Source: Crossaster papposus
Lineage: Eukaryota > Echinodermata > Asteroidea > Velatida > Solasteridae
Assembly (NCBI GenBank): GCA_037893245.1
Contig: JBAIAA010000669.1
Coordinates: 1,178,001 to 1,242,000, forward strand
DNA: 64,000 nucleotides
Direction: 5' to 3'
In this document: one piece after another, positions 7,501 to 58,800 of the stretch
How positions within the stretch are numbered: the first letter of the stretch is position 1
How the letters are laid out: every line of letters starts with the position of its first letter
Made by a program: the position numbers and the translations under genes
The notes under the pieces: generated by a model
Databases searched by the model: none
What the model was told of the DNA's origin: nothing
Seen by the model: the letters and a program-made list of their open reading frames with translations, nothing else

Positions 7501-7591
7501 AAGTGTTGATTCGTAATTTACGAATTCACTCGGCGTTCGCGCCTCGTGATCTCTAGTTACGAATCCACATGTTGTCGTGTATTCTCCTTAA

Positions 7592-7928
7592 AGGGATCGT
7601 ATACGTTTAGTAATTACTCCAAAAATTAATGGCAATAAAAACTTACTTGGTAAGAAATAGAGCAGCTTTGGATAGTATAATGCATTTTTAGAAACTGCGG
7701 TTATGGAAAAAGATATCACTTTTTATACCCAAAAATTCGAATCTGAGAAGCGTTACTGCAGTGGCATTTCTCAGAGTGTGTATTCCAATGCAGATTATTC
7801 TTCATGCGTGGACAAAACCGCTCCAGAATTCTGGCAGTATCTCAAATTTTGTAGAGGTTAGTTTTATGGTATATATCTATAGAATTGAAACAAACAGTGG
7901 GTTCCAATTATTAAACGTATACGATCCC
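7592..7928. mobile_element. Family B short element
   Basis: It begins AGGGATCGTATACGTTTAGT and ends ACGTATACGATCCC, with TTAA on the left (7,588-7,591) and TTAA on the right (7,929-7,932). Internal sequence matches the other family B copies (ACTTACTTGGTAAGAA, GATATCACTTTTTA). No coding capacity. Confidence 0.85.
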
Positions 7929-8088
7929 TTAAACATACTGATATCACGTGGAGGCACTTTGTTGAAAAAAACATTCTACAGATTTCCTTTCAGACCTGCA
8001 TCGGTTTAGTCGTTGACCAAACATATCCGGCAAAATATGCTATATTGGTTCCAGAAATACCTTGGGGGTTCTTTATTATACCTCCAAA

Positions 8089-8345: not shown

Positions 8346-9990
8346 TAGACGTTGTAAGTAATTAATAATAATAATAACAATATCAGAGGATTTATATAGC
8401 GCAAAGTATCTGGAGAACCATTCAAATGCGCCGGTCACTGGTAATTACTGTGGTCCGTATGAAAGATTGAATAGATGAGTCTTCAGGTTGCGTTTAAATG
8501 ATGGAAAATCAGTTGTGTCCCTTAACTCGTCTGGCAAGATGTTCCAGAGACGCAGTGCACAGCTATAGAAGGCCCGGTCTCCGTAGCTTGCAGGGCGAGT
8601 TTTGGGAACATAAAGTGTCTGCGATGAAGAGGATCTGAGACCTGGTCGCATGTTGTGAAGTTGTAATAGGTCTCGTGTGTGTAGGATGGGGCTAGTCCGT
8701 GAAGGGCTTTGAATGTGAGGAGTAAGAGTTTAACTTGTATTCTGTATTTGACAGGAAGCCAATGAAGATTGTATAGTACAGGTGTAACATGTTCGGAAGA
8801 TCTTGTTCGTGTGAGTAGGCGGGCAGATGTATTTTGAACTTTTTGAAGACGTGTTAATGATTGCTGGGGTAGTCCTGTAAGTAAACTATTGCAGAAGTCT
8901 AGTCTAGAGGAGATGAATGCATGGATGAGTTGTTCTGCAGTATGAAATGAAAGCGATGCCGTGATTGCTGCTATGCGACGTAGATGCGCGTAGCAGGACT
9001 GACAAACTGTGGTAATATGTCGGTCAAGGTTCATAAACCTGTCAAAAATGACGCCAAAGTTGCGCGCATCAGAACAAGCGGAAACTAGAGTGTCTCCAAT
9101 GCGTATGCTAGCCATATTAACTTCCTGTCTGAGGTGAGGTGAACGAATGATGAGAAACTGGTGTTTTTTTTATAGATTGGCAGCCATCCACTTGCGCATG
9201 TCGTCTAAGCAAGTTTTAATGATGTGTTGTTCATCAATATCGTCGTCTGATATATTGGGAGAAAAGGTGGCGTAAAGCTGCGTGTCGTCTGCGTAAAAAA
9301 GGGTGCGGAGGCCATGTTGTCGGGCAATGCGACCAAGGAGAGATATGTATAGAGTAAAGAGCAAAGGCCCTAAGACAGATCCCTGTGGCACACCGTGGCT
9401 GAGGAATGAGACATTAGATAATTCAACTGATATACACACATACTGAGAACGATTGTGTAAATACGATTTAAAGGGATCGTATACGTTTGTTAATTACTCC
9501 AAAAATTAATGGCAATAAAAACTTACTTGGTAAGAAGTACAGCAGCTTTGGATAGTATAATGCATTTTTATAAACTTTTCACTTCGAAGTACTGCGGTTA
9601 TGGAAAAAGATATCACTTTTTACACCCAAATATTTGAATCTGAGAAGCGTAAATACCACAGTGACGTTTCTCAGATTGTGTTTTCCAATGCAGATTATTC
9701 TTCCTGCGTGGACATAACCGCCCTAGATTGTCGGCAATATCTCAAAATCGCTACCACCTTTTGAAATGAATTTTTTACAGGTTAGTTTTATGGTATATAT
9801 CTATAACTAAATAGGATTGAAACAAACAGTGGGTTCCAATTACCAAACGTATACGATCCCTTTAAACCAATCTAGAGCAATTTCTTGATCACCAAATTGG
9901 TGCCGCAATCTATGTAAAAGGATGTTGTGGTCAATGGTGTCGAAAGTTGCTGATAGGTCAAGTAGAACTAATAGAACAGCCCGTTTGAAA
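8345..9990 (-). mobile_element. CR1/Jockey-like LINE, 5'-truncated and interrupted
   Basis: Minus-strand reverse-transcriptase coding sequence runs from about 9,990 down to 8,445. The 5' part (9,866-9,985) reads VLLVLLDLSATFDTIDHNIL, a typical RT block. It continues after an inserted family B element with [13 protein letters not shown] and the catalytic YADD (about 9,290), then a C-terminal part ending in LWNILPDELRDTTDF-type sequence. There is a frame change near 9,150. The 3' end has GCGCTATATAAAT followed by (ATT)n at about 8,360-8,400. The copy is truncated and not functional. Confidence 0.88.
9472..9861. mobile_element. Family B short element inserted in the LINE
   Basis: A full-length family B copy lies inside the LINE reverse transcriptase, flanked by TTAA at 9,468-9,471 and 9,862-9,865. 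The LINE reading (minus strand, ...ALDWFK then SYLHNRSQ...) resumes across it if the element and one TTAA are left out, which shows a clean insertion with TTAA duplication. Confidence 0.93.
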
Positions 9991-28300: not shown

Positions 28301-31300
28301 GCACATGTCCTTGCACAGGTCCTTGCACAGGTCCTTGCACAAGTCCCTGCACAAGTCCCTGCACAAGTCCTTGCACAGGTCCTTGCACAAGTCCTTGCAC
28401 AAGTCCTTGCACAAGTCCTTGCACAAGTCCTTGCACAAGTCCTTGTACAAGTCCTGTCACAAGTCCTGTCACAAGTCCTGTCACAAGTCCTGTCACAAGT
28501 CCAGTCACAAGTCCAGTCACAAGTCCAGTCACAAGTCCAGTCACAAGTCCAGTCACAAGTCCAGTCACAAGTCCAGTCACAAGTCCAGTAATAAAGCCAG
28601 TCACAAGTCCAGTCATAAAGCCAGTCATAAGCAACTGGTTGAACAATGACAAAAGAATGCCTTTGTCAAAGCTCATTTGAATACCCTGTGATTTGAATTG
28701 GAACTGGAGGACTTGTGATGGACTTGCAGGGACTTGTAGGGACTTACAGGGAATTGTGATGGACTTGACTACATCCCTGCTCCCAACTCTCCCTGTCTTG
28801 CCGATGATGGGAGTATACACGGAGCCCCTGGCATTATCGTCTTTGTTTTCGTTCATTGGGTTTCAAGGAGTCTTTCGTACAACAGCATGAAGACGCTGAA
28901 GAAAGGAACGTTTCTGGGACTGTCCCACGTATCGTCGTTGTGAGTATTGCACTTTAGGAAACGTACCAGAGATAATTATGACCAGAGGGTATTTAACAAA
29001 ACATATATGAAGTAAAATTGTAGAACAAAATCGTTAGAATTGTATAATGTTGTGACTTGCTTTTATTTTCGGATCGAAAGGTAAGGTTTATGAATGGGAA
29101 TATGTAATGTGCTCAACGTTAGCCGGTATTAACCAGTTCGCGCCGTAGGACGTATATACACGCACGGGTTTTTTTCCGAGATTCAAAACGGATGACGCAT
29201 AAACACGTCACGAGCAAGGCCGGGAATGTCTATCAGCAGCATGCAAGGCCGGAAATGCGTTGGTGTGCTTCCCGGTGCCATCGGCCTGAACCCGGCGCGA
29301 ACTGGTTAAACAAGTTCGTACAAAATCGACTGTAGGGTTCGGACACTGACGACGACCCTCAACTTCTGCTCAGCTCTATGGGTCGTATGATTACAAACTA
29401 GCAAATGCTGTGAAGAATAAGCAAAAAGTAAAAGCATTTACTTCGGAGTAAAAGCAATAAGGAAAAGCAAAAAAAGAACAGTAAATCGGAAACGCGCTTA
29501 CAATACATTGTAATTCTTTTACATACCACGGGATGGTAAGTTAAACAGGCGGACTTTGCTTGATCGATCGATATTCATGCGATACGGACGGCTCTCGGAC
29601 CTACAATTCAGACGTCTAGGCATAAACAAAATGTCAGGTCGGAAACCAGACTAACGATTATGTTACCTATTGTTTGTTTGTTTACAGGGACATAGATAAT
29701 GTACCCATTCGATACATTGAGCATGGAGCGTTGGAGGGATTGACCGCGCTACGATCGCTGTGAGTAACAATTTCAGTATAGGTTAATTTCTTTTTAAATA
29801 AAACATTTTTCATTCAAATTCACCAACTCTCACATTTAATCTCGTCAGAGAAAACAATCCACGCTTTTTTAACCAAACCAATTTAGTCATTTACCATTTA
29901 CAGGTAGGATACACCATTTGCAGATATCGGAAAAGATTTACTACTAAATTATTAGGAAATATTATTTGATATTGAATAACGATATCATTGTAGGCATCCA
30001 GCAAAACAAGTTTCGCTATATATCATGTAATAACAAAAATAACAAAATTATAAAAAAATAAATTCCATCGCCAGACGGCGATCGCGAAAAAAACATAAGA
30101 ACAACATAAGAACCACTGCCCGACGCCGGTTGAAAAAAAACGCCGGTTTTTTTGCTTTTCTCAGCATCCATAATTTGAACTTTGAATAGGTCAGTTAAAC
30201 GATATTTACTATAAAATCCAACCCCCAACATCCACCAATTCATGATCATTCAAGCGATTACCAGTGGTGTGTCCTACCTATACCCAGGGACCGAGTCCCC
30301 CATACACTCTTTAGACTATTGTTACCAAAGCACCAACAAAATAAACCTAAAAATTATTCCTGAAAAACCACAACATTCCTCAAACACAATGACCACCATA
30401 AAAAAGAGGGTTCTCTCCGTTCCATATCTTGCTTCATATACCCAACCTTTAAATGTGAGAGTTGGTGAATTTGAATGAAAAATGTTAAACAATGTGACCT
30501 GCTCCCACGAAATCAGAGTAAAGTTGACCTTTTGATATTTTGAGATATTGGTATTTTCAGATTCCTTGAATTATTAGCTTAAAAATGATTTTTAATTTAT
30601 TGGGTAGGTTATTAAAAAAATATATATAATATTGAGCAAAACTAGCGGTGATATTTTTATATTTTCATAAATTTCTCTACATTTTACTAGTAAAAATAAA
30701 TTTAGATTTTGTTTCTGCAAATTGTTTGCAAACAAATACTTGGTAGTTTAAAAGAAACATATGTGGGAATTGTATCATGCCAAGCCCCCCCACCCCTTCC
30801 CCCTACTGTAAAATCGGCTATTTTCAATCATAACTCAATATAGCATAGCGAGACTTTACGCTGTTTTCATGGGAGCAGGTCACAAATAGCCGGCAAACAT
30901 ATAATAACCAATAGATAATGTATCACTAACCGCAATATATCTCACAGATTAATCAATACTGCAATACATAATGTAATGATAATGTAATAACAATAGACCG
31001 ATAGTGTTGTACAAGTTACTACAATATCCGTCAACTTGTTGTTGAATTGTCGGTTAAAAGGATCGAAAACGTTTGGTAATTGGAACCCACTTTTTGTTTC
31101 AATCCTATATAGTTATATACCCTAAAACTAACCTGTAAACATTTTTCATTTCAAAAGGTAGTAACGATTTTGAGATATTGCCGAAAATCTGGAGCGGTTA
31201 TGTCCGGGCAAGAAGAATAATCTGCATTGGAATACACACTCTGAGAAACGTCACTGCAGAACGCTTCTCAGATTTTTGGGGATAAAAAGTGATATCTTTT

Positions 31301-34300
31301 TCCATACTCCGCAGTACTTCGAAGTGTAAAGTTTCTAAAAATGCATTATACTATCCAAAGCTGCTGGACTTCTTACCAAGTAAGTGTTTATTGCCATTCA
31401 TTTTTGGAGTAATTACCAAACGTATACGATCCCTTTAATGATACAATATCGGTCAATTTGCGTTGGTGTTCGACCTGTGCAAGACTGCTACGTGCATTAA
31501 ACACATACTCCGTTGGTTTATTCATGGATGTTCGTTTTTCCTGATTCTTTCCTAGCGAACTATCGTTTAATGCCCTGGAGTTTGTCTACCCGGACACGTT
31601 CCAAGATCTTTCGTCACTTCAGCATTTGTAAGTACGATCACGCCCACCCACGTACACTCACGAGCCAGTCTGGATTTAATGGGATTGTCAGCGCATAGAT
31701 TGAGTTTCATTTATATACTGGGGGTCTAACATTTTAAAATAAAATTGCTTTGTGTAAACGGACGGAATTGACAATTATACGTCAGGCGATTGAACTATTA
31801 AAGGTAGGTTACACCATTGGTAAGTGCTAGAATGTTTATGAATAGGTGAATTCTTTACACAATTTTTTTTTTAGGAAGGTTATTGTTTAAAGGGATCGTA
31901 TACGTTTGGTTATGACTCCAACAATTAATGGCAATAAAAACTTACTTGGTAAGAAGTACAGCAGCTTTGGATAGTATAATGCATTTTTAGAAACGTTTCA
32001 CTTCGAAGTACTGCGGTTATTGAAAAATATATCACTTTTTATCTCTACAAATTTGAATCTGAAAAGCGTTACTGCAGTGACGTTTCTCAGACTGTGTATT
32101 CCAATGCAGATTATTATTCCTGCGTGGACATAACTGCTCCAGATTTTCGACAATATCTCAAAATCGCTACCACCTTTTGAAATAAAATGTGTACAGGTTA
32201 GTTTTATGGTATATATCTATAACTATATAGGATTGAAACAAACAGTGGGTTCCAATTACCAAACGTATACGATCCCTTTAACTGAACTGTCCGAAGTTTT
32301 ACAATCATGGATGCTGAGAAAAGCAAACAAAAAACGGCGTTCGTTTTCAACCGGCGTCGGGCAGTGGTTCTTATATTGTTTCTTTTTTTTTCGCGATCGC
32401 CGTCCGCCGTCCATTCAAAAAACAAATCACAACTTGTATCTTTCTGTATCTCTCAATATTTGTTGCCCTCTTTTTGTCTTTTTCCCATTTCTTTTTTATC
32501 AAGAGGGCGGTGTGATATCGGACTCCTTTTTTCCCTTATGCTACAGTCACACGGCCATGTTACGGACCTGCGGATGCCTGCGTATATTTGGATAATGAAA
32601 ATGCGTAATTTTTAACCCCAATACGGAAATTTGAGCAAAAGTTACCTATATTCTGCGGACGATACGGATTAGTTACGGATGTTACGTATGAATTACGGAT
32701 GTTACGGGTAAAACCTGCGGATGAACCCATCCGCTGCCAACCCGCTGGCACATGTTACTGACGACTTACGGATGACTTACGGACGATACGGATGACTTAC
32801 GGACGATACGGATAAGTTACGCTCGTGTCTGCGCATGTCGGCTTCCTCTGGCGTCCGCACCATCCGCAAATAAACCCACGTGGATCGGAGCTTGCTTCAG
32901 TCGCATTTCATCAAGTCTGAGATCTAGTTCCAGTTATTCAACAGTTTCTTCTCCATCTTTTTGATGTTTACGTACCCCTATGTATCCGCAGGCAACTGCA
33001 CACCCGACAAAGTGTGCGGATCAGTTACGTATCTAACGTATCCTGCGGATGAGTTTACGTATCTTACGTATGAGTTACGGATGCTTACGTATATTTCATC
33101 CGCAGCAAAATTTTGAGATTTTCAAAATTCCGCTGCGGATCTGCGTATGTCTGCGGATCCTGCGGATTGAATTACGGATGGATACGGATGCTTACGGATG
33201 ATACGGATCCTTGCGGATGCTTACGGACTTTTATCCGTAAGCATCCGCAGCTACCGTAAGTGGCCGTGTGACTGAGCCATTATATTGGTTAAACCTGGAC
33301 ATTGTTAATACCCTCACATTAATATTTTATACAATGTCTATTCTGTCTTATATAAATTATTTAAATCTGTTTTGCAGAACCATTCGAGGAAATTCCCTAT
33401 CAACGCTGCAGAAAGGAACCTTCCGTGGGCTTCACAACGTCATGGACCTGTAAGATCATTGGATTGAATAAAATAAGATGTTTTATCCGTCGCGGACTTT
33501 TTTTAAAACATGTATTTATCATCGAATTCAAGTGTGGGTAGTTTGTTTGCAGTAACACCAGAGGGCGGAAGACGAACTCGTTCCTCTTTAGTGGTGAAAC
33601 GAAACGACAGATTTCGGGAGCTGGCTCCCAGACTATATTACTTACCTCCCTAACCAACGGACTCTTCTCAGAACCACACAATTCAAAAGTCATTAAATTA
33701 TTCAAACTTTGTTATTATTACATGTATTATTATTATTATTGGTAATGAAACCAAGGATCCTTCAAAAGCGCTCAAGGCACTGTAGCTCTTAAGCCAGAAG
33801 AACCCCATAGACAGAGGCTGTGTCAGCCAGGAACACCGGGGCAAACCCCTTCTCTTAGGATAAGTGTTCTTGGTTCTTTTACGTGCATTATACAATTTTA
33901 TAATGTTATAATGAGAAAGATTATACACACATTATAAATTATACAACACACGGGACCTACAAATTTACGCCCCATCCGAAGGACGAAGCAATAGTGGGTT
34001 TAATTGCCTTGCTTAAGGACACACGTGTCGACACCGGGACTCGAACTCACGCTCTGCGGAACAGAAATTTAACCCAGCTCTTAACCGCTCGGCCACGACA
34101 CTCCACAATATCGGACCCATATCGGACCCATATCGGACCCATATCGGACCCATATCGGACCCATATCAGACCCATATCGGACCCATATCGGACCCATATC
34201 TGACAACAGAGCACAGCTGCTATAATAACCAACAGCTCGTCCACATTGCAACACTTGCACATCCTAACAAAATCGACAAACAAACTTGGTTCTATGGTCA

Positions 34301-37300
34301 ATTTGACCTCTCTTGGGAAATTACTCAAAAGTCTGTCAAAATGTATAAGATGTGGACGTTTGGTATCTCATTTAAAGGGATCCTATGCGTTTGGTAATTA
34401 CTCCAAAAATGTATGGCATAAAAACTTACTTGGTAAAAGTACAGCAGCTTTGGATAGTATAATCCATTTTTAGAAACTTTTCACTTAGAAGTACTGCGGT
34501 TATGGAAAAAAGATATCACTTTTTATCCCCAAAAATTTGAATATGAGAAGCGTTACTGCAGTGACGTTTCTCAGATTGTGTACTCCAATGCAAATTATTC
34601 TTCTTGCGTGGACATAACCGCTCCAGATTTGTGGCAATAGAGAGGTTTCGCACCGTCGCGGATACCGGTCCGCATACGAATACGTCATCACTTTGTGCGC
34701 TCACGTGACCTGTAACTGTTTTGAAGACGTTTCCATACACGCTACGAACTGATACCGGCCGCCATACACGTAAGTAAAAAACGGATACCGTTTTCGTAGA
34801 CTTTTTAGCTAAGTGCCGTGTATAATCAACAACACTCCCGCCATATTACTGTTAGTGTTATAACCCATGAATGTAGAGTGTAATTTGTGGGCAGTGCCCC
34901 CAAAAAGAAAAGAAAAATAGACTGAAAAAAGGTGTCGGTGGCGACTGTACATTTGTCATGCATGTTGTTATTGGACAGCTCGCCCCAGAACAGCCTTGCC
35001 GGCCATATCCTATTCCAAAACTCGCTGCTCTGTATCTGGAGTGGCAACGAGTATCGAGGTCGCATGTGCCAGTACTCAGTATAGTACTATTTTAGTAAGC
35101 TAATTTACTCTCCTTAGCAAGTTAACACATTACAAACTTGCCTCTTGGTCTAGTCAACTAATTAACTCGCCCCTCTTCCTGCATGGTTCAACTAGTACAC
35201 TGTCACTGTAGTATAATTCGCCCCTTGCACAAACTAGCCGCAGTATATGCTAAAACGTTTGTTAAGCCTAACTGTTGGAAACTTGTCCCCTGGCTCATGT
35301 CAGAGTAGTTCTAGGCCTACTACTGCATACTGTTGACTAACTCGTCCCTAGTAATTAGTAGTAAGTTCTTGGCATCTCTATACAATTAAGTTATCTCTTT
35401 CAGCATCACAGACAAGGGATGTGGGAGGGCGAGTTGTTGAGGACAGAAGTGTGTTTGTAGAGTAAACTACCTGACTACTTGGCCCAGGGCAAGAAGTTTT
35501 TTTAGGAAGCGAGTTTGTAATTGTCATGATTGATAGCAGAGAAAGAGTTAGCTGGGGGAGAGTTAGTATGGGTGAGTTTGTAGGAGGAGGGGGAGGGAGT
35601 GCGCTGCGGGTTGAGTTGACCAACATTTAGGCCAAATAAAAACAAAACATCCCCACTTGCTTTTTTTCTAAGGCCTTTCTTCTTCTTTTCTCAAAAAATT
35701 AAAAATAATATTAAACGAGCAGTCGGTTATTACAGGTTTTAAATCGATTTTGGACCCAACTGTCTGGGAAAAGTCGTCTTAAAAAAAGAAGAGGGAAGCC
35801 ATTTTGAAAAGTTCTTTATGACAGAATCTAAAAATAAAAGACCCCTTCATTAAAAAAAAACGAATTTGGTCTGATAGGCATCTTTCCGTTTCTCAACTCT
35901 ATTCATCTTCTCCTTTACTTAAAGTCAAACTCACAATGTTTTCTTTTTTCAGGAACTATATACACGTCAACATGTCAAAAACAACTCGATTCTACCCTGC
36001 GCTTGACATAGCCCTTTTGAAGGAGGTCACTGCTGTAAATCCATATGATGGGTCAGACAAAAACGCCAGATGGGAAAGCATTTTGACCAATGTGAATGCT
36101 GGTCTTCTTATGATCAATAAAGAAGTCACGCTACGGAGCTGCAAGGAGCGCGTGAAAACACTCATCAAGGCACATCGAAGGGCTGAAATGCAGTCTCTGA
36201 AAGCGTAAGGAACTCCTTTGTGCTTTCTTCTTACGCTGTTCTCTGATGAAAATTACGGGAGGCTTCACTTCAACCCCTCCCCCAAGATGTTTGTATTTTT
36301 ATCTAGTACTAATACTATACAGTGGAAGTCAAAAAGAAAGTGACCAGGAGTACATGTATTTCCCCCCGTAAAAACAACAACAATTAATTTTGATCTACCA
36401 GTAAGGTATGTCTTGATAGAGCATGTTCTTCCCAACATATTATAAAAACAAGAGTTATTGAAATTGTCCTTACTATCAAGAGCTGTGCCTGTTTTACCAA
36501 AATACCCCTTTTTAATAGCTGTCCATAGAAAGATAAGATACTTTGAAGCTATCAGCTGGGTGAGCGCCAGAAATTGTACATCTTCAAAGTCTAGTTCATC
36601 TTCATTCATTGGTCAGAAATGAATGAATAATATACTGTAATTTGGACCATGAATAATATTTCTAAATCAAAGTTCCAGAAGTAGATTTCCCTAAACCTCA
36701 ACGGAGGAGATCAAACGTATCAGCCAGACAGTCCTAGAGATTTGTTTATTGGAATTGCATAGCTCAAAGTATTCCAAAATCAGAAACCAATTACTATGAA
36801 TCACGTCCATTACATTTGTTTTATAATTTATGCTTGTGTGTTTCAGGTCTGGCACAGACGAGGAATACTCGGAGCGTGAACAACTTCTAACAGAAGTTGA
36901 TGAGCTTATTGTGGAGGCGACCAGGGTGACGGAGGGGGAAAACATAAAAAAGACGGATGAGAGGAAGAAGGAGGAGCAGGGAAGAGAAATTAGAGAGGCT
37001 GCCATGCAGGGAATGACGCCCCCCAAAAGGCCAGGTAAACATGCCATTTGATATGATCAGCTCTTTACTCATATCATGTATGTACATTATGTAAGATAAC
37101 TTTTGGTTCATACATCTTTACTTTACATCTTTTTATAGTAGAAATGCCTGCTGCTCTGACAATTAATGAGCAGTGTAGTATGGACCTTATCCATCCTTCT
37201 ATAAAGGCACGTTTGAAAATGCACATCCGCATCAGTGTGTGTATATGCATGGAGAAATAAGTGACTTATTTCTCCATGGTATATGTATATTCATTGTTTC

Positions 37301-40300
37301 AGGAGACAACATCGAAGATGTTACAGTGAAATGGCCCAAGAAATCTCCATACATGTATTTCTGACAATCTTCTGTGTTTTAGTTGTGGATTAAGAGTGCT
37401 TGGTCTACATTCTTTTCATTTCTGCAGGAGACACTGAAACCACTAATACGAAACGACCAAAGACGGCCGGGGGTCGTGCAACCATGTCAGAATATCTAAA
37501 CATCCTAAAGGAAAAAAACCAGAAAGAAGCAGACCTGAAATTTGAGCAACTGAGGTTGGAACGTGAAAGATTCGAATTTGAAAAAAAGGAAAGGGAACAG
37601 CGGATGCAAAGAGATGCTGCCACTTTAGAGCTGATCACAAAATTAGTAGCAAAGTAAACTACATGCATGTAGTTGATGCGATTAAAAGGTTTCGTGCCAG
37701 AGTTAAAGCTCGCCATGTTGTTTATTGAAGTTAATCTTATGAAGTTCTTGCCAACCACAAGTTGTGTCAAAATGGGAACTCCAAAATAATTGGTTTGTAC
37801 GTCAAAGATCTGAACTATCAGTGTGGTTCCATTTGAAAAGGTAGTTTATCAAATTTTCATTATCAGCCCATTTTACCATTGAATCGCGTCAACTTTGAAA
37901 ATGGTTCAGTGGGTTTGTGTTTTGAAATCAATGGAGCTTGGTCATCCATGAAGCAAACAAGGAATCATTGGAAAGCCGATTTATCACCATTTTAGGATAG
38001 AACTACAATGAGTGGCAGTTTTCAAGTTCATCATTTTGACTACGAGCCCGTTGATTTCGGATGACTGAATAGAAAATTTAACAAAATAAATGAATGAGCA
38101 TACACAGTTTTGAAGTTTGAACAAAGTTGTCGACTTAATTTAATGCATGAGTAAGTAACTGAACTCTGCCCATATTTGTATTTATTAAAATGCTTTCTTT
38201 CAAATTTCAGCATACTTGAAATGTTTGTTATTCTTTGTTCTTGTTTAATCTTGTAATTATCTCATAGCCCTGCAGCTTGTGAAATATCAAACATACAAGC
38301 TTGTCATGGGGGAAGGAATGGGGTTTTAAGAATACTTGGGTACCAAAAAAGTGTTTTTGTTTCCAGTAAACACTCGCATTTTGAATATTTTCATTTTCTT
38401 TTTTTAAACTTGGACTGGATGCATATATGCATAACTCGAGTACAATATGAAAGGGGGGGGGGGGGGGGAGACTTGGGGCCTTATTTTTCGTTAGGACAGT
38501 GGAACTTGACAATGTGTTTTAAACAATACAAACATTTTGGTCACATTCTGAGAGGGGGGGGGGGAGGTTGCGCTCAACCCTTTTAATTATGCAAGTGGGG
38601 GTAGTTTTCAAGCACAGGACTGATTTAAGTTAAGTACTCTTCCAGAGTTGGTGGAACAAGTTCAAAGTAACGGCCTGTTTGACTGCTGTACAGACATGTA
38701 TGGCAATTTGTGAACAAAGCACCAACCAGATAGTACTTGGCAACTGGCTGAAGGAGCACTTTGAGATTTTTTCTGAAATCTAGAAATGCAAAGAGGGATA
38801 CAATTTTCCAAAACTGCCACTCAACAGATTCTCTAACCGAAGACATCAAACGGTTAAAGTTTTGCTGATTTTCAGTGAGATTTGCACCCTTGAATGGGCA
38901 CAGAAGATAGTTCCGGATCGGATATGCTGGATCACCATACAGGGTAAATGGTAATCCGTTGACATCTACAAGTCCAGCACCATCCATCGCATTCATAAGT
39001 CCACTTTCACGCAGTAGTGCACAGTCATGTCTTCTCCCTTCTACAGGTCCGAACATATTACATATCATGCCATCGGGTGTGACGACTGATTGGAACTTCA
39101 GCGAGTGAATCCTCTTATGTCCGTTGTAGCACACTCGCTGGTTTCGAGTAGGTCTGCATATGGGACGAACAGTTCCATCGATGAAGCCAATACAGTTTGT
39201 AAGTGGAGCACCTTTATGATGAATGGCATCTGCATATGTCTGTAACTTGTTCACTAACCATGGCTGGTTAAAGTCTGTGAAGAGGTGGCCATGTGCTTCT
39301 AACAGGTGATTGAGAACAGAGTTGACAATCATTGAGAGGGTTGATTTAGGCCGTCCAAAAAATGGTTCCAAATCTGCAAGTCTGTTGGGGTAAACAAACC
39401 GTCTGAGAAGGACACATAGACCATCCACTCCATCAACAACGGTTCTGTTAGGGCAGACAATCCTGTTTGGCAAGTGTAGAACAGCGGCTAGGTGACGAAT
39501 CGCTTCCTTGTCGAACCTGAAATTACTTCTGCACTGGACGTCAGTAAAATTATCAAGGTTGAATCTTGGAAAGTTAGGATCATATGTTGTTGGTCCAGAT
39601 TCTCGCATAAGGAGAAAGGCAATCATGTCTTCGTCGTCATTTTCAACTGCTATGCGAACTAAATCTTGTATTTCTATGGGCGCCGCCATCTTGAAAGTTA
39701 GCGCCCTCAAGCGGGAATTCGTCACGGTTTGCGAAACAAGATTGATATCCGCTCCAACGCGTACTGTTACGGTTACCGTATGCGTATCCGTAAACGTACC
39801 GGTAGGCGTGCGAAACCTCTCTAATATCTCAAAATCGCTAACACCTTTTGAAATGAAATGTTTACATGTTAGTTTATGGTATATAAATCTATAACTATAT
39901 AGGATTGAAACAAACAGTGGGTTCCAATTACCAAACGTATACGATCCCTTTAAAAGTGGTGTATCTTTCAAACAGGTTCTCTCTGTCCAATATCTTGCTT
40001 CATATGGTACACCTGCTGATGAATAGTTTGTCTTTGCTCACAGGATTCTGGTCAGTAATAACATCTCCGAGGTGGAACCGGGGGCTTTTCAGGGGCTGGA
40101 AAATCTCATATATTTGTAAGTTAATCGATCTTGTAATTCATAAAGTACACAAAATAGTGATTATTTCCATATTTTCATAATAGTATTTCATTCCAAATGT
40201 CTGAATTTTCTTAGTATGTAATCGTAGCAATTACTTTATGAAATAAATAAATTTCAAACTTTTTTTTATTGTAATCATGCCGATATTTATGACAAAACAG

Positions 40301-43300
40301 ACAATGGTTGTATGTGTAACGAGGACACCAAATTTGGTGTCCCCGTTACACGTGAAACAATGTTGTTTATCATGTATGAAGAAGATAAGTTTGATTTGTA
40401 CGATTCATGTTTTGAGGATAAAACATTACCACATACTGAAACTGCAAAGAGTACAGAAAATATTTATGTACAAAGTTATGCATATAAATATGAATTGACT
40501 CCCTTAATTATGTAAAACCACATACACGACTACATGTTGTTTTCTAGACCGAGTTACTGGCCTCTATAGTTATCGCTTTTTTAACATTTGGACATCATCT
40601 GGCGCTACTAGAGGCCGAGCCAGACTAATAACTTATTTTTGAAAAGTCTTAAATGTGGTTCAAAATATCGCCCAAATCCACAAAAATAATTAACAAAATA
40701 CCTCTAAATCTTCTGAACAGCCTTCCATATGTGTCCAAGCTGGGTTTAACGAAGTTCTAAAGTACTCACGATCAATTCTTGACTTGCAAATCAAGGAAAT
40801 TCGAGCGAGTACTGCACACTTGTTGTTCGCCATGAGCATTGTGGGATGCCTGTGACGTCACTGCCAAAGTGCATGCCGACCGTACCACTATACGCGGGGG
40901 TGCTCTGCGATGTCAGGTCAGTGTATCCGCACATAATATTTGGTGCACGCGATACACACTGACCTGTGACATCGCAAAGCACCCCCGCGTATAGTGGTAC
41001 GGTCGGCAAGCCAGATGATGTCCAAATGTTAAAAAAAGCGATAACTAGACGCCAGTAACTCGGTCTAATAGTTTTCCTATTTTTTTCTTCAGAGATCTAG
41101 GCAACAATAGCTTTACGGATCTGTATGCTGAAACCTTCGTTGGATTGTCCAAGCTCCAAGTGCTGTAAGCAATCAGTAATTATAGGATTTCAGGATTACG
41201 TTAAATAAATGTAATTTTCAACAATGATACTTTTGACTGTACGCAGGCCTGTTGTGTTCACACCAGTAAATTGACTTCCATAGACACCCGGCCGACGATA
41301 TACCCCAATTTCCGAAATTAAGGGGATTTTGTTTTGCAACTCTCCAAGGTGATTGAGACGCACGTGAAATTAAAACTTACTTCATCATCTCTGAGTTTTG
41401 TTTAATTTTGTAGGGGTTAACAGATTACCTTTTTGGTTTGCGGGGAGGGGGAGAAATTCTTATCAAAAATGTTCACCCATAACAGTTGTTTTGTGGCATA
41501 TCGCCATCTTGAAAAATGTCTCCGCTCCATTGTAAAATAGAGCACTTTTAGGGCCCAATTTCATCTAAATTTCACAGCAACACAAGCTGGCATTCCTGTG
41601 CACGACTTCTGCCCACCTTTTTTGTACATAACATTTATAGAATATGCATTTATACGCAGTTATATTACAAAGTTATTACAAATTGTAGTCATATGTTGTT
41701 GTTGTTGTTCCAGATGGATGAGTCACGTGCCCCTGAGACACATAGAGCCTGGGGCGTTCAATGGACTATCCAGCGTTGTTTCGTTGTAAGTAGATATTCT
41801 TTCTTGCGTTTGGAAAAATATCTAGGCAGGATTTTGCTTTTCTAGTGGCGTAGATTTCTTTTGAACATTTGGTATTAGGGGGGTCCATGGAAAAATGTAT
41901 ATGGAGAGGAAGGTGGAGAAATATATGATTACATGGGGCACCCCTCTTAGTCAAAAGTTATGGGATATATCCCCCCCCCAAAAAAAAAAAATTCCCCCCA
42001 ATTTTCCTTGTTTCTACACCTATAAGATTGTCCGATAGTGCTGGCGTAAATTTCTCTCGAAAAATAGTGCCCGACCGGGCACTATACTCAAATTATTTGA
42101 CTGGTTGCAGCGCCATCTGCAGGTTGAAAAGGCACATCATAAAACGGATCACGATACAGATTGGCATAATTCGACCATAGAGCACGTCCTTCGTGCCTGT
42201 GACCAGAAGAGTGTCGCTATTTTCCTAGGCCTTCGGCCTCGGGTAATATGACCCTCTGCTGGTCGCTCACAGTCCCTCGGGGGCGCATAGACGTGCACTA
42301 GTGACCTCATCGCCAGTCTATATGTGTATATTATCGCTGCGATTGGACACAAGAAAGCTGATGAACCTAATGCTGGACACGGAAGAGTGGAGGGCAGCGA
42401 CAAGTCCCGATATGGACTTAGGTAGGATAAGCTAGATCATCGCAGAGCATCGCAGAGCATCGCAGAGCATCGCAGAGCATCGCAGAGCATCGCAGAGCAT
42501 CGCAGAGCAAAGCATCGCAAAGCATCGAAAAAGCATCGCAAAGCATCGACAAAGCATCGCAAAGCATCGCAAAGCATCACAAAGTGTCGCATCGCATCGC
42601 ATCGCATCCCAAAGGATTGCAGAGCATCGCAAAGAATCGCAAAGCATCGCAAAGCATCATCTTGTCCTCAAATTTAACATGGTTTTGCTTCACAAAATAG
42701 GGTCTGGAACTACTAAAACTACTGTACCAATTTGAATTTAATTGGTGTCACTTTCTTCTATAAAAAGATTCTGCACCCATCGCAGTTTTGGCCTCGGTTT
42801 TGTTGTTTTGTTTTGGGGTTGTTGTTTTTTTGGGGGGAGGGGGTGGGGGCGAAGCCACTTGGAATAACAAATTGGTTTTCCCCCGGGTTTCCCTTCCCCA
42901 CCCCTTACAAACTCGACCCTAGTCACACCGCTGTTGTAGGTTCTATAGACTTAATTCACACGTGCAACTAACCGTTTGCGAAAACCTCGTTTAACTGTCT
43001 ACTTGACGTTTTTTTGTTGTTCACAGAAACATTTTGAATGCGGATTTGGAAGCACCGACCCTTGGTATACTCGATGGCTTAAACAATTTGGCAACATTGT
43101 AAGTTTTCTTTTTTTGTTAGTGGGGGGGGGGGGGGGTGTAGACTCTTGGTGACGAAAAATACAGGAGCCGGTCTTTTTCGGAAGTCACTAAAAACTAGCT
43201 AGTGTAGCGGTTCTTGTTGTATTTTTTAAGGCACTTATTTACTCTAACACTTTAACGCCCGATGACAAAATTCAACAATAGACAAACGCCCCAGGACTAA

Positions 43301-55814: not shown

Positions 55815-58800
55815 GATTGTACCCAAACGCGGCAGTATGTTCAGATTCCTTCAAGGTCGTCTATTTGCCGTAATCTGGGCTACCCTCGTGTGGGCCCAGT
55901 GCGGGTTGTACGGGGGTGGGCCGGCGTTCCTCGCCTCGGCAGATACGCCAGCTAACTGCTCCTTTGATAGGGTCAACGGGAAATGGATGTTTTACGTTGG
56001 ACCGGTAGGTGATCAATAGAAAGATCCAGGGGGCCACACCCCTCGACAAATTGACCAATCGCAGTGCATGATTTCAAGGTCCGACAGACATGTCGCCATT
56101 TTGTCCGACAAAAATGCTTCACTTCAGTACATGTATTCGCATTTTTATATCACTGTGGAGACATGGCTTTATTCTCGTGTAAAAAATGGTTAGAAAGTCG
56201 AGCACGTTTTTCAAAATGCTCCCATTTTAACCGTAATTTTGACCCAATATACCCTATATTATACCCTAACCCAAACACTAACCCTTACCCACATCCTAAC
56301 CCTAGTTTTTGAGTAATTTAAGTAAAATCCAAAAATCTAATTCGTGAAATCCCTAGTGGAGACCTATTCATCTATATAAATTACCCTTTGGAGACCTTTT
56401 CACTCCCATTGTCCGCATTGTGTTCACGTCTCCAGAGGGTACCGTATTTCGCACCAGTTTACCTCACACGTGTTTGTGGTTGAACTTGTGTACATTGCCA
56501 TTTTGATTTTAATCAAAATCATGATCAAGTGTGTACCAACCTTGCAAACGCTGTTTGGACTTGCAAACAAAAGATGTCCACACAATACACAAACTGAAAA
56601 CCTTGGTGTCGACTTGGCCACGTCCACACAAGGTGTTTTTTAATTTTTTTATAAAGAGCTCTAGAGGTAAAATGGGTTAGGGTTATATTCGAGAAAAGTG
56701 AAGAGGAACAATTTAGAGTATAACAGTCACAAAGAATGGTCGGAACAAAATTCAGGGTTTGGGGAAAATTAGTATGTTGGTGCAATTTGGTCCAGGAATG
56801 TGCCCACGTCCGGCGATCGTGAATTTATTTTTAGAAAATTCAATTTTTCGGAACAATTACATGATATCTAGCGCAATCATGTTGCTGGATGCTTACAATC
56901 ATTATTTACTTTCAAATAAGTAGGATATTTCTTAATAATTCGGTTTTTTTCTCGATATCTGCAAATGGTGTATCCTACCTTTAAAGGTAGAATACACCAT
57001 TGGTAATTGCTTAAATTATCATGAATGGGTAGATTTGGGGGTATATTTTTTGGTAAATTTCGTTCAACTGACCTGTCGGAATATTTTATATTCATGGATG
57101 CTGATAAAAGCAAGAAAAACAGCATTCGTTTTCAACTGGCGTCGAGCAGTGGGTTCTTATGTTGTTCTTGTTTTTTTCGCGATTGCCGTCCGGCGACCGT
57201 GAAGTTATTGCTATAACATTCAATTTTTCGGAACAATTACAGGATATCTAGCGCAATCATTTTGCTGGATGCCTACAATCATTATTTACTTTCAAATAAG
57301 AAAGATATTCCTTAATAATTCGATAGTAATTTGTTTTCTCTATATCTGCAAATGGTGTATCCTACCTTTAAGCGTGTAGTTTTGGTTTGATGTTTGCAAA
57401 TGTATAACTATTACTCTTAAAGGGATCGTATGCGTTTGGTAATTGGAACCCTTTGTTTGTTTTAATCTTATATAGTTATAAATATACACCATAAACCTAA
57501 CCTGTACAAATTTCATTTCAAAAGGTGGTAGCGATTTCGAGATATTGCCGAAAATCTGGAGCGGTTATGTCCACGCAGGAAGAATAATCTGCATTGGAAT
57601 ACATAATCTGAGAAACGTCACTGCAGTAACCTTCTCAGATTCAAATGTTTGGGGATAAAAAGTGATATATTTTTCCATAACCGCAGTAGTTCGAAGTAAA
57701 AAGTTTCTAAAAATGCATTATACGATTCAAAGCTGCTGTACTTCTTACCAAGTAAGTTGTTATTGCCATAAATGTGGATTAATTATCGAACGTATACGAT
57801 CCTTTTAAGCTAATTTAATATGGGCTCTTATGCAGTATTTACATCTGTTTTCATCTGTAAGGGAGGCCAGACGAATAGGATCAATTGCACCAAGCCGTGG
57901 CAAGCTGTGTCGCAGTGGAGCGCTATGTTACATTTCCCCGACGTGGCAGTCGATATAAACGGTAACACTGCAGCTTTTTGTCCGACACATTATCTAAAAC
58001 GCATTGAGTCATGGCCAAATCCATCCTGAGCCGCGCAGAGTTTAACGGGTTCTTGAATTGTCGTCCTCAAACCCTGCGGACATTCGCAGCAATCTTTAAA
58101 CAAGTTGTCCAATACATGATATGAACGTCCACCCCTGGTAAAATACAAATTTCTACCACTATATTTAATTTTATTGGCGTTTACGTAGCTTTTCAGTCTT
58201 TTATGTTCCTTATTCTGTATAATATATATAATAGCAAGGCTTTATTTCACGTTCTGTACGTTAATTTCTACAATTCTTATGTGGGAGGATGAACATTTTG
58301 TGAGAACACCTCAGATGTCCAAGCGAATGGACCAATAGAAATGCGCGTTGGTTCGCATGCCTTTGGCTGGTTTTTCGAACCCCAGCTTTGTCTTCGTCTC
58401 GGGATTCATACAGTTTAGCAATAGGCTGTAGCCAGAAACGAATCCAAAGCCAGGGTTTGGGAAATGGCCTTGGTCTGTTTGTAACGGAGGCTCTGATTAG
58501 GCGCATGATTGTTTGCGCTAATAACCACGGATCTTGGCGTAAAAGCGCTGCGTGGCTCAGGATGGGCCAAATCCCAAACGAAATGTTTCGATATAAATTG
58601 CTCAATCATTAATAATGGTATAGGACTAAATTGGTTTGTTTAAAAGCGTGTGAATTGGTTTTCGCGGAGGAAATTTAATGTGAGAGTTGTTGAATTTTAA
58701 TGACAACCGTTTTAGCCGAAAAAAATATTCTATTATAATATTCTAAAAATATTATATTCTATTCTATCAAGAAGAAAACCCACACAAATTATAATAATAA

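What the first reader, a model, noticed from the sequence alone, without database searches (positions are those of the whole stretch)
34639..39822. An apparently complete, two-gene Harbinger transposon caught inside a short element
Mirrored 15-bp ends, an exact 3-bp AAT duplication, a transposase with all three acidic catalytic residues and a spliced Myb/SANT-like partner with an intact frame are all present. The family B host element supplies the empty-site sequence, so the borders are known to the base, give or take the A/T ambiguity. Complete autonomous Harbinger copies are scarce, and this one may be young or active.
Basis: partly seen in the sequence, partly recalled or inferred. Interest (0 to 1): 0.8.

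Follow-up and report, generated by a model that had tools for sequence, protein, structure and literature searches.

The report
Young Harbinger-type jumping gene
The window holds a complete two-gene cut-and-paste transposon of the Harbinger superfamily, the only one of the copies found whose enzyme gene is unbroken, together with a recent burst of short copies whose flanking letters suggest that the element carries part of its old site with it when it jumps.

Summary
Genes: one-exon DDE_Tnp_4 transposase (354 aa) and a three-exon 216-aa partner; its Myb label is weak. In its 1.02-Gb genome eight close transposase copies were found; seven are frameshifted or stopped, only this one is open (but with Trp294 where six copies and two related families have Gly). 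Full copies elsewhere differ by 0.4% substitutions. Forty-one resolved MITEs, mostly 438 bp, lie a median 0.7% from their consensus, and three are present/absent between 99-100% identical places: recent mobility of the family, not proven activity of this copy. TSD (ANT, consensus YANTR) and AG-starting TIR fit the Pangu group, not TWA PIF/Harbinger. Unexpected: 11 of 41 MITEs have TSDs differing only at the central base. In all seven with a readable empty site the target was ATT, and the changed base, on either side, follows element orientation (A six times, C once). I infer that donor TSD overhangs travel with the element and are sealed into the new site, as in the piggyBac model.

The parts
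34639..39822 (+). the whole element (5,184 bp)
34636..34638 (+). left target-site duplication AAT
39823..39825 (+). right target-site duplication AAT
34639..34653 (+). left TIR AGAGAGGTTTCGCAC
39808..39822 (-). right TIR, exact inverted copy
38625..39689 (-). transposase CDS, 354 aa, stop included; DDE_Tnp_4 at residues 170-322; D171, D253, E290; Trp294 where most copies have Gly
35972..36204 (+). partner gene exon 1 (sub-threshold Myb_DNA-bind_4 likeness; three helices in a low-confidence model)
36847..37034 (+). partner gene exon 2
37428..37657 (+). partner gene exon 3, charged and coiled-coil-like by eye, stop included
34770..35952 (+). possible 5'-UTR intron of the partner gene (GTAAGT ... 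TTTTTTCAG); inferred from sequence only
34639..34977 (+). left part that survives in the MITEs (first about 334 bp clearly shared)
39721..39822 (+). right part that survives in the MITEs (102 bp, identical to the MITE consensus)
34371..34638 (+). left half of the family-B host repeat, AAT included
39826..39955 (+). right half of the family-B host repeat

Best explanation
A recently mobile autonomous transposon of the PHIS (PIF/Harbinger-ISL2EU-Spy) superfamily, Pangu type, inserted in a family-B repeat. Its transposase, probably with the second protein, cuts out the element and its short internally deleted derivatives (MITEs) and inserts them at Y-ANT-R. Inferred mechanism: the transferred strands are cut exactly at the TIR ends, the other strands on the far side of the 3-bp TSD, so the free element carries 5'-ANT tails from its old site. 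In the new ANT target, opened with a 3-base stagger, these tails fill the gaps and are ligated; if the central base differs, the mismatch is fixed on one side or repaired. Shown: structure, copies, ages, presence/absence, mismatched TSDs and their targets. Inferred: the tails, their ligation, the partner protein's role, which enzyme moved the MITEs.
For: Borders, TSD and empty site. Eight close transposase copies found, only this one open. Full copies 0.41-0.44% apart in substitutions. MITEs are the two ends of this element; 41 resolved insertions, median 0.68% from consensus. Present/absent at 99-100% flank identity for L056, L041, L053. TSD centre mismatched in 11 of 41, 0.7 expected from the MITEs' own divergence (Poisson P 2e-10). 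Seven of the 11 have an empty site: target ATT in 7 of 7 (two-sided P 0.016), left side changed in 3, right in 4, to A six times and C once, in element orientation. Matched TSDs lean the same way: AAT/AAT 15, ATT/ATT 5 (P 0.04). Both sides changing to the same element-strand base fits something brought with the element.
Against: Numbers are small; the two tests are P 0.016 and 0.04, the latter about 0.06 by hand if L046 and L052, whose flanks are 87-93% alike, are one event. In mPing, the best-studied relative, insertions of a TCA-flanked element read TTA or TAA in 45 of 46 (PMC4561436), so no carry-over was seen there. L077, target ATT, kept ATT on both sides. L075 is ATT/ATT although most of its older paralogues read AAT. 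L055 is AAT/AAT but three paralogues of its repeat have no AAT there. Seven of 41 TSDs fit no ANT pattern. Pangu membership was not tested by phylogeny. Trp294 may weaken this copy's enzyme.
Confidence: 0.62

Rival explanations
1. Ordinary Pangu/Harbinger insertion with gap-filling by polymerase; the mismatched TSDs are synthesis or repair errors at the gap.
For: Gap-filling is the textbook route to a TSD (established knowledge); 23 of 41 TSDs match exactly.
Against: The two ends are filled on opposite strands, so errors should mirror each other. Instead left and right sides both change to the same element-strand base (A six times; C once) and all 7 known targets are ATT.
Confidence: 0.15
2. 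Ectopic gene conversion between near-identical MITEs, copying the central TSD base from other (mostly AAT) copies; the outer A and T are shared, so homology reaches just past the centre.
For: Would also lock the base to element orientation; copies are about 99% identical. L046/L052 and L006/L045 are pairs whose flanks are 87-93% alike while the MITEs are about 99% or more alike, which conversion could explain.
Against: Needs tracts that end within three bases outside the element in 11 of 34 ANT-flanked copies, also in copies with only 1-2 other differences from consensus (L040, L041, L056, L089).
Confidence: 0.15
3. The empty sites used are paralogues that differ from the true targets, so the side and base of the change are misread.
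For: L038 rests on a 95% paralogue, L089 on 97% and 93% paralogues, L040 on five repeat copies at 95-99%.
Against: L056, L041 and L092 have 98-100% identical empty sites, the first two with a flank found in full at only two places in the genome; a single 3-bp target cannot supply both AAT and ATT anyway.
Confidence: 0.05
4. The family has died: it was recently mobile but no working transposase is left, and this open frame is a survivor with a damaged enzyme.
For: Seven of eight copies broken; Trp294 at a position that is Gly in six copies and two related families.
Against: 0.4% divergence between full copies at different sites, MITEs identical to their consensus (L052, L053), presence/absence speak for recent movement; other individuals may carry other copies.
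Confidence: 0.2

Closest known systems
Pangu group of the PHIS superfamily (Han et al. 2015, PMC4482050; abstract, section 6 and passages read)
   Same: 3-bp ANT TSD, TIR beginning AG and within 11-40 bp, a DDE transposase plus a second ORF without recognised motif; few intact families (two in that study)
   Different: 5.2 kb against an average consensus of about 3.5 kb; a large young MITE family and mismatched TSD centres, neither mentioned for Pangu in the parts I read; phylogenetic place untested
Ping/mPing (PIF/Harbinger, Tourist MITEs; Gilbert et al. 2015, PMC4561436; abstract, section 8 and passages read)
   Same: autonomous element with a short derivative burst (recalled for Ping/mPing); 3-bp TSD with a free centre; proposed TSD-derived 5' overhangs at excision
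   Different: TSD TTA/TAA; a TCA donor TSD was not passed on in 45 of 46 new insertions
piggyBac (PMC7351741; passages read)
   Same: a TSD-derived 4-nt overhang is carried by the excised element; synthesis can be bypassed (title of a reference cited there)
   Different: TTAA, hairpin route, unrelated transposase family (recalled); with a fixed TTAA a carried base leaves no trace
ISL2EU group (PMC4482050; passages read)
   Same: the AAT|element|ATT class looks like its A|AT|T target with a 2-bp AT TSD
   Different: empty sites show a 3-bp target; no YqaJ or THAP domain match in Pfam

Membership tests
PHIS / PIF-Harbinger superfamily | DDE_Tnp_4-type transposase with three acidic residues | tested here: met
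   PF13359 82.6 bits, cut-off 24.8; D171, D253, E290; that DDE_Tnp_4 is the Harbinger domain is recalled
Pangu group | 5'-ANT-3' TSD | tested here: met
   34 of 41 insertions have ANT on both sides, 23 of them identical; readable empty sites of the window, L006, L053, L077 and of seven mismatched insertions are 3 bp; L055 is an exception
Pangu group | TIR 11-40 bp usually beginning AG or GG | tested here: met
   15 bp, AGAGAGG; definition from PMC4482050
Pangu group | second ORF, without known motif (Results) or with Myb/SANT (Discussion) | tested here: inconclusive
   216-aa spliced frame; Myb_DNA-bind_4 13.3 bits, below cut-off 27; fold search of a low-confidence exon-1 model without a match at E 0.001
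Pangu group | transposase falls in the Pangu clade next to IS5 | not testable with these tools
   no reference Pangu or Repbase sequences held
PIF/Harbinger group, narrow sense | TWA TSD | tested here: not met
   0 of 41 TWA/TWA; moving the border one base gives 1 or 0 of 41 matches against 23
ISL2EU group | 2-bp AT TSD in AATT | tested here: not met
   3-bp empty sites for the three AAT/ATT insertions with an empty site, of six
MITE family of this element | same ends, internal deletion, same TSD type | tested here: met

The most novel reading that the evidence does not exclude
The target-site duplication of this Harbinger-type family is not simply a copy of the target: its central base can be a memory of the previous address, carried as a 5' overhang and ligated in, so that insertion can proceed without repair synthesis, and mismatched TSDs record donor-to-recipient jumps.
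Probability: 0.55. Interest if true: 0.68.

Novelty: new variant of a known kind. Interest (0 to 1): 0.58.

Why it matters
Intact Pangu-type elements are rare in print (two potentially active families among 34 in Han et al. 2015). This one comes with a young MITE family that is present/absent between near-identical places, an animal counterpart of Ping/mPing (that the host is an animal is inferred, not looked up). How the PHIS groups make their varied target sequences is left for further study in that paper; mismatched TSDs with known empty sites give evidence on the strand cuts from genome sequence alone. If the carry-over is real, TSDs in such families cannot be taken as pure target records, and grouping by TSD needs care (the AAT/ATT class mimics ISL2EU).

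Tried and rejected
Exon 1 model: three helices, pLDDT 58; the Foldseek PDB search gave nothing at E 0.001 or better. PDB sequence search with the transposase: no match at E 1.

2-bp AT TSD in AATT for the AAT/ATT class: my first reading, rejected because the empty sites of L040, L041 and L056 are one base shorter than an AATT join.

A four-base microhomology at the MITE deletion, suggested by BLAST overlap, rejected on the alignment: shared sequence runs to GTTAT, then CGG of unclear origin, then the right part.

Trp294 as private to this copy: rejected, the copy in L064 shares it.

Related families: three intact 354-aa relatives (L065, L066, L019) among the five places at 66-67% DNA identity; 212 of 351 aa identical for L065; their ends were not resolved.

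Rows dropped before the count of 41: places with the same 15-bp flanks were counted once, which removed L036, L037, L045, L069, L070, L086, L101 and L102 (the last three share their flanks with L085); L050, L051, L057, L076, L091 and L099 gave no pair of ends in the stretch held. L046 and L052 were counted apart although their flanks are 87-93% alike. Seven of the 41 are 'other' TSDs. Paralogues of L046, L049 and L074 at 74-78% were not readable at the junction; L054, an 'other' TSD, has an empty site reading ATT. One search was given 1,591 of the 2,080 bases prepared (L038, L073, L088, L089, L092, L094 whole and a short piece of L098); one search was given 1,029 of 2,377 (L053 in part, L055, L071, L087 and a few bases more). 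No empty site was sought by genome search for the other matched insertions.
Full report
WHAT IS THERE. The element spans 34,639-39,822. Both ends read AGAGAGGTTTCGCAC (15 bp, exact inverted copies) and both sides carry AAT. Removing it with one AAT gives a 398-bp sequence that aligns almost end to end with five other copies in the window, four at 88-91% and one at 79% identity; the junction reads AAT in four and AGT in one.

GENES. On the minus strand a single exon, 38,625-39,689, encodes 354 aa with DDE_Tnp_4 (E 3e-23) and D171, D253, E290. On the plus strand three exons (35,972-36,204; 36,847-37,034; 37,428-37,657) with GT/AG borders give an open 216-aa frame. Exon 1 shows only a sub-threshold Myb_DNA-bind_4 match (13.3 bits, cut-off 27), the whole protein none above cut-off; a low-confidence model has three helices. 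A noncoding first exon with a GTAAGT donor at 34,770 is inferred from sequence alone.

COPIES. The window lies in a 1.02-Gb genome in 1,841 contigs. The transposase DNA has 19 matches there: eight at 91-100% including this one, five at 66-67% and six shorter ones at 71-73%. Of the eight, seven are frameshifted and/or stopped; only the window copy is open. Three full-length copies (L058-L060) share their immediate flanks and so probably descend from one insertion, as do L062 and L063. The window copy differs from L058-L060 at 21-23 of about 5,170 aligned sites (0.41-0.44%) and by 6-8 gaps, among them 23 bp between the genes that the window copy lacks. The partner gene is open in the window copy and L058-L060, not in the other four. 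The window copy has Trp294, shared with L064, where the six other copies and the translations of the related families L065 and L068 have Gly. Its effect is unknown; it is a reason not to call this copy active.

MITES. The left end gave 40 scored matches of 71 candidates, the right end 40 of 68; an exact 22-base end pattern matches 58 times, its reversed control 0 times. Most are short elements made of the left roughly 334 bp and right 102 bp of this one. Forty-one insertions were resolved, 28 of them 438 bp long, the rest 366-445: 0-9 mismatches to their consensus, median 0.68%; L052 and L053 equal it. The left part of the consensus differs from the window copy and L058-L060 at several sites while the right 102 bp are identical, so none of the full copies in hand is the exact parent.

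RECENT MOVEMENT. For L056 and L041 the left flank occurs in full at two places in the genome, once with the MITE (C201, C594) and once without (C104, C146), at 99% over 1,140 bp. L053 has a similar pair (C279 filled, C414 empty, about 100% over 1,140 bp), in a region that also has more distant copies. These look like two haplotypes; recent segmental duplication is not excluded. No second place was found for the window insertion's own left flank beyond an abundant repeat (40 scored of 4,506 candidates).

TARGET. Of 41 insertions 34 have ANT on both sides. Around them the base before is C or T in 32 of 34 and the base after A or G in 34 of 34: Y-ANT-R. None of 41 reads TWA/TWA. This and the AG-starting TIR are the marks of Pangu in Han et al. 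2015, which groups PHIS elements by TSD.

MISMATCHED TSDs. In 23 of 41 the two TSDs are identical; in 11 they are both ANT but differ at the centre (AAT/ATT 6, ATT/AAT 4, ATT/ACT 1); 7 are other. The MITEs' own divergence predicts about 0.7 centre mismatches (P 2e-10). Empty sites were found for seven of the 11: L040, L041, L056 and L038, L088, L089, L092. In all seven the target is three bases, ATT, in element orientation. The left TSD is the changed one in three, the right in four. The new base, in element orientation, is A in six and C in one. The empty sites of L056, L041, L092 and L088 are 98-100% identical to the filled flanks, those of L040 95-99%, L038 95%, L089 97% and 93%. For L039, L072, L073 and L094 no empty site appeared among the 40 scored candidates.

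CONTROLS. With matching TSDs, the window (AAT), L006 (AAT), L053 (AAT) and L077 (ATT) agree with their empty sites. L075 (ATT/ATT, older paralogues mostly AAT) and L055 (AAT/AAT, three paralogues with no AAT) do not. Paralogues of L046, L049 and L074 were too distant to read.

MECHANISM. Random errors of gap-filling should be mirror images at the two ends, because opposite strands are filled. The observed changes instead follow the element's own strand. The simplest source is the element: 5' overhangs made of the donor TSD, mostly AAT in this family, travel with it and are ligated opposite the target's own ANT. A fitting detail: targets read as ATT (10 mismatched with A/T centres plus 5 ATT/ATT) equal targets read as AAT (15 AAT/AAT, or 14 if L046 and L052 are one event), as expected if targets are unbiased and donors mostly AAT; the target of the four mismatched insertions without an empty site is assumed. 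Gilbert et al. 2015 proposed TSD-derived 5' overhangs for mPing excision, and piggyBac carries a TTAA overhang. Against it, mPing with TCA/TCA TSDs gave TTA or TAA in 45 of 46 new insertions, so if the tails exist there they are not kept. Ectopic gene conversion is the best rival: two pairs of places (L046/L052, L006/L045) have more alike MITEs than flanks.

LITERATURE. Searches of the open library (two returned nothing) listed no paper that, from titles, abstract beginnings and the passages I opened, describes donor-derived TSD bases in this superfamily; the library lacks most subscription journals, so this is weak evidence of absence. ISL2EU, Spy, Nuwa and Pangu definitions are from passages and section 6 of PMC4482050; Spy details from passages of PMC11304231.

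VERDICT. The element is a new member of a known group; the TSD behaviour is the part that may be new.

Noticed in passing
window 7588-7933, 9467-9866, 31054-31438, 31886-32281, 34371-39955, 57417-57808: Six copies of the family-B repeat in 64 kb, about 390 bp, with about 28-bp inverted ends (TTTAAAGGGATC...); a TTAA duplication is possible but not tested.
   Followed up: partly
window 33712-34109: A roughly 400-bp repeat: the flank query had 4,506 first-look candidates in the genome, and the 40 listed matches other than the window itself are 90-95% identical.
   Followed up: no
L055 (C184): MITE flanked by AAT/AAT although three paralogues of its target repeat have no AAT at all there; could be a captured element bringing both TSDs, or an unusual target copy.
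   Followed up: partly
L046/L052 and L006/L045: Pairs of MITEs at the same spot of similar flanks (87-93% alike) while the MITEs themselves are about 99% or more alike: repeated hits of one site, or gene conversion.
   Followed up: partly
window 34108-34204 and 42438-42658: Tandem arrays with 11-bp (ATATCGGACCC) and 10-bp (CATCGCAAAG) units.
   Followed up: no
L065:4053-5117, L066:3790-4854, L019:1059-2123: A second, related transposon family with intact 354-aa transposases and about 99% identical copies, possibly also young.
   Followed up: partly
L058, L059, L060 (C383 and C112 twice); L062, L063 (C877 twice); L085, L086, L101, L102: Insertions with matching immediate flanks at two to four places, probably carried along by duplication of their surroundings.
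   Followed up: partly
L077: The MITE sits in a tandem array whose many units each show the empty ATT site.
   Followed up: partly
window 40040-40120: Just beyond the host repeat, a short leucine-rich-repeat-like coding stretch by eye.
   Followed up: no
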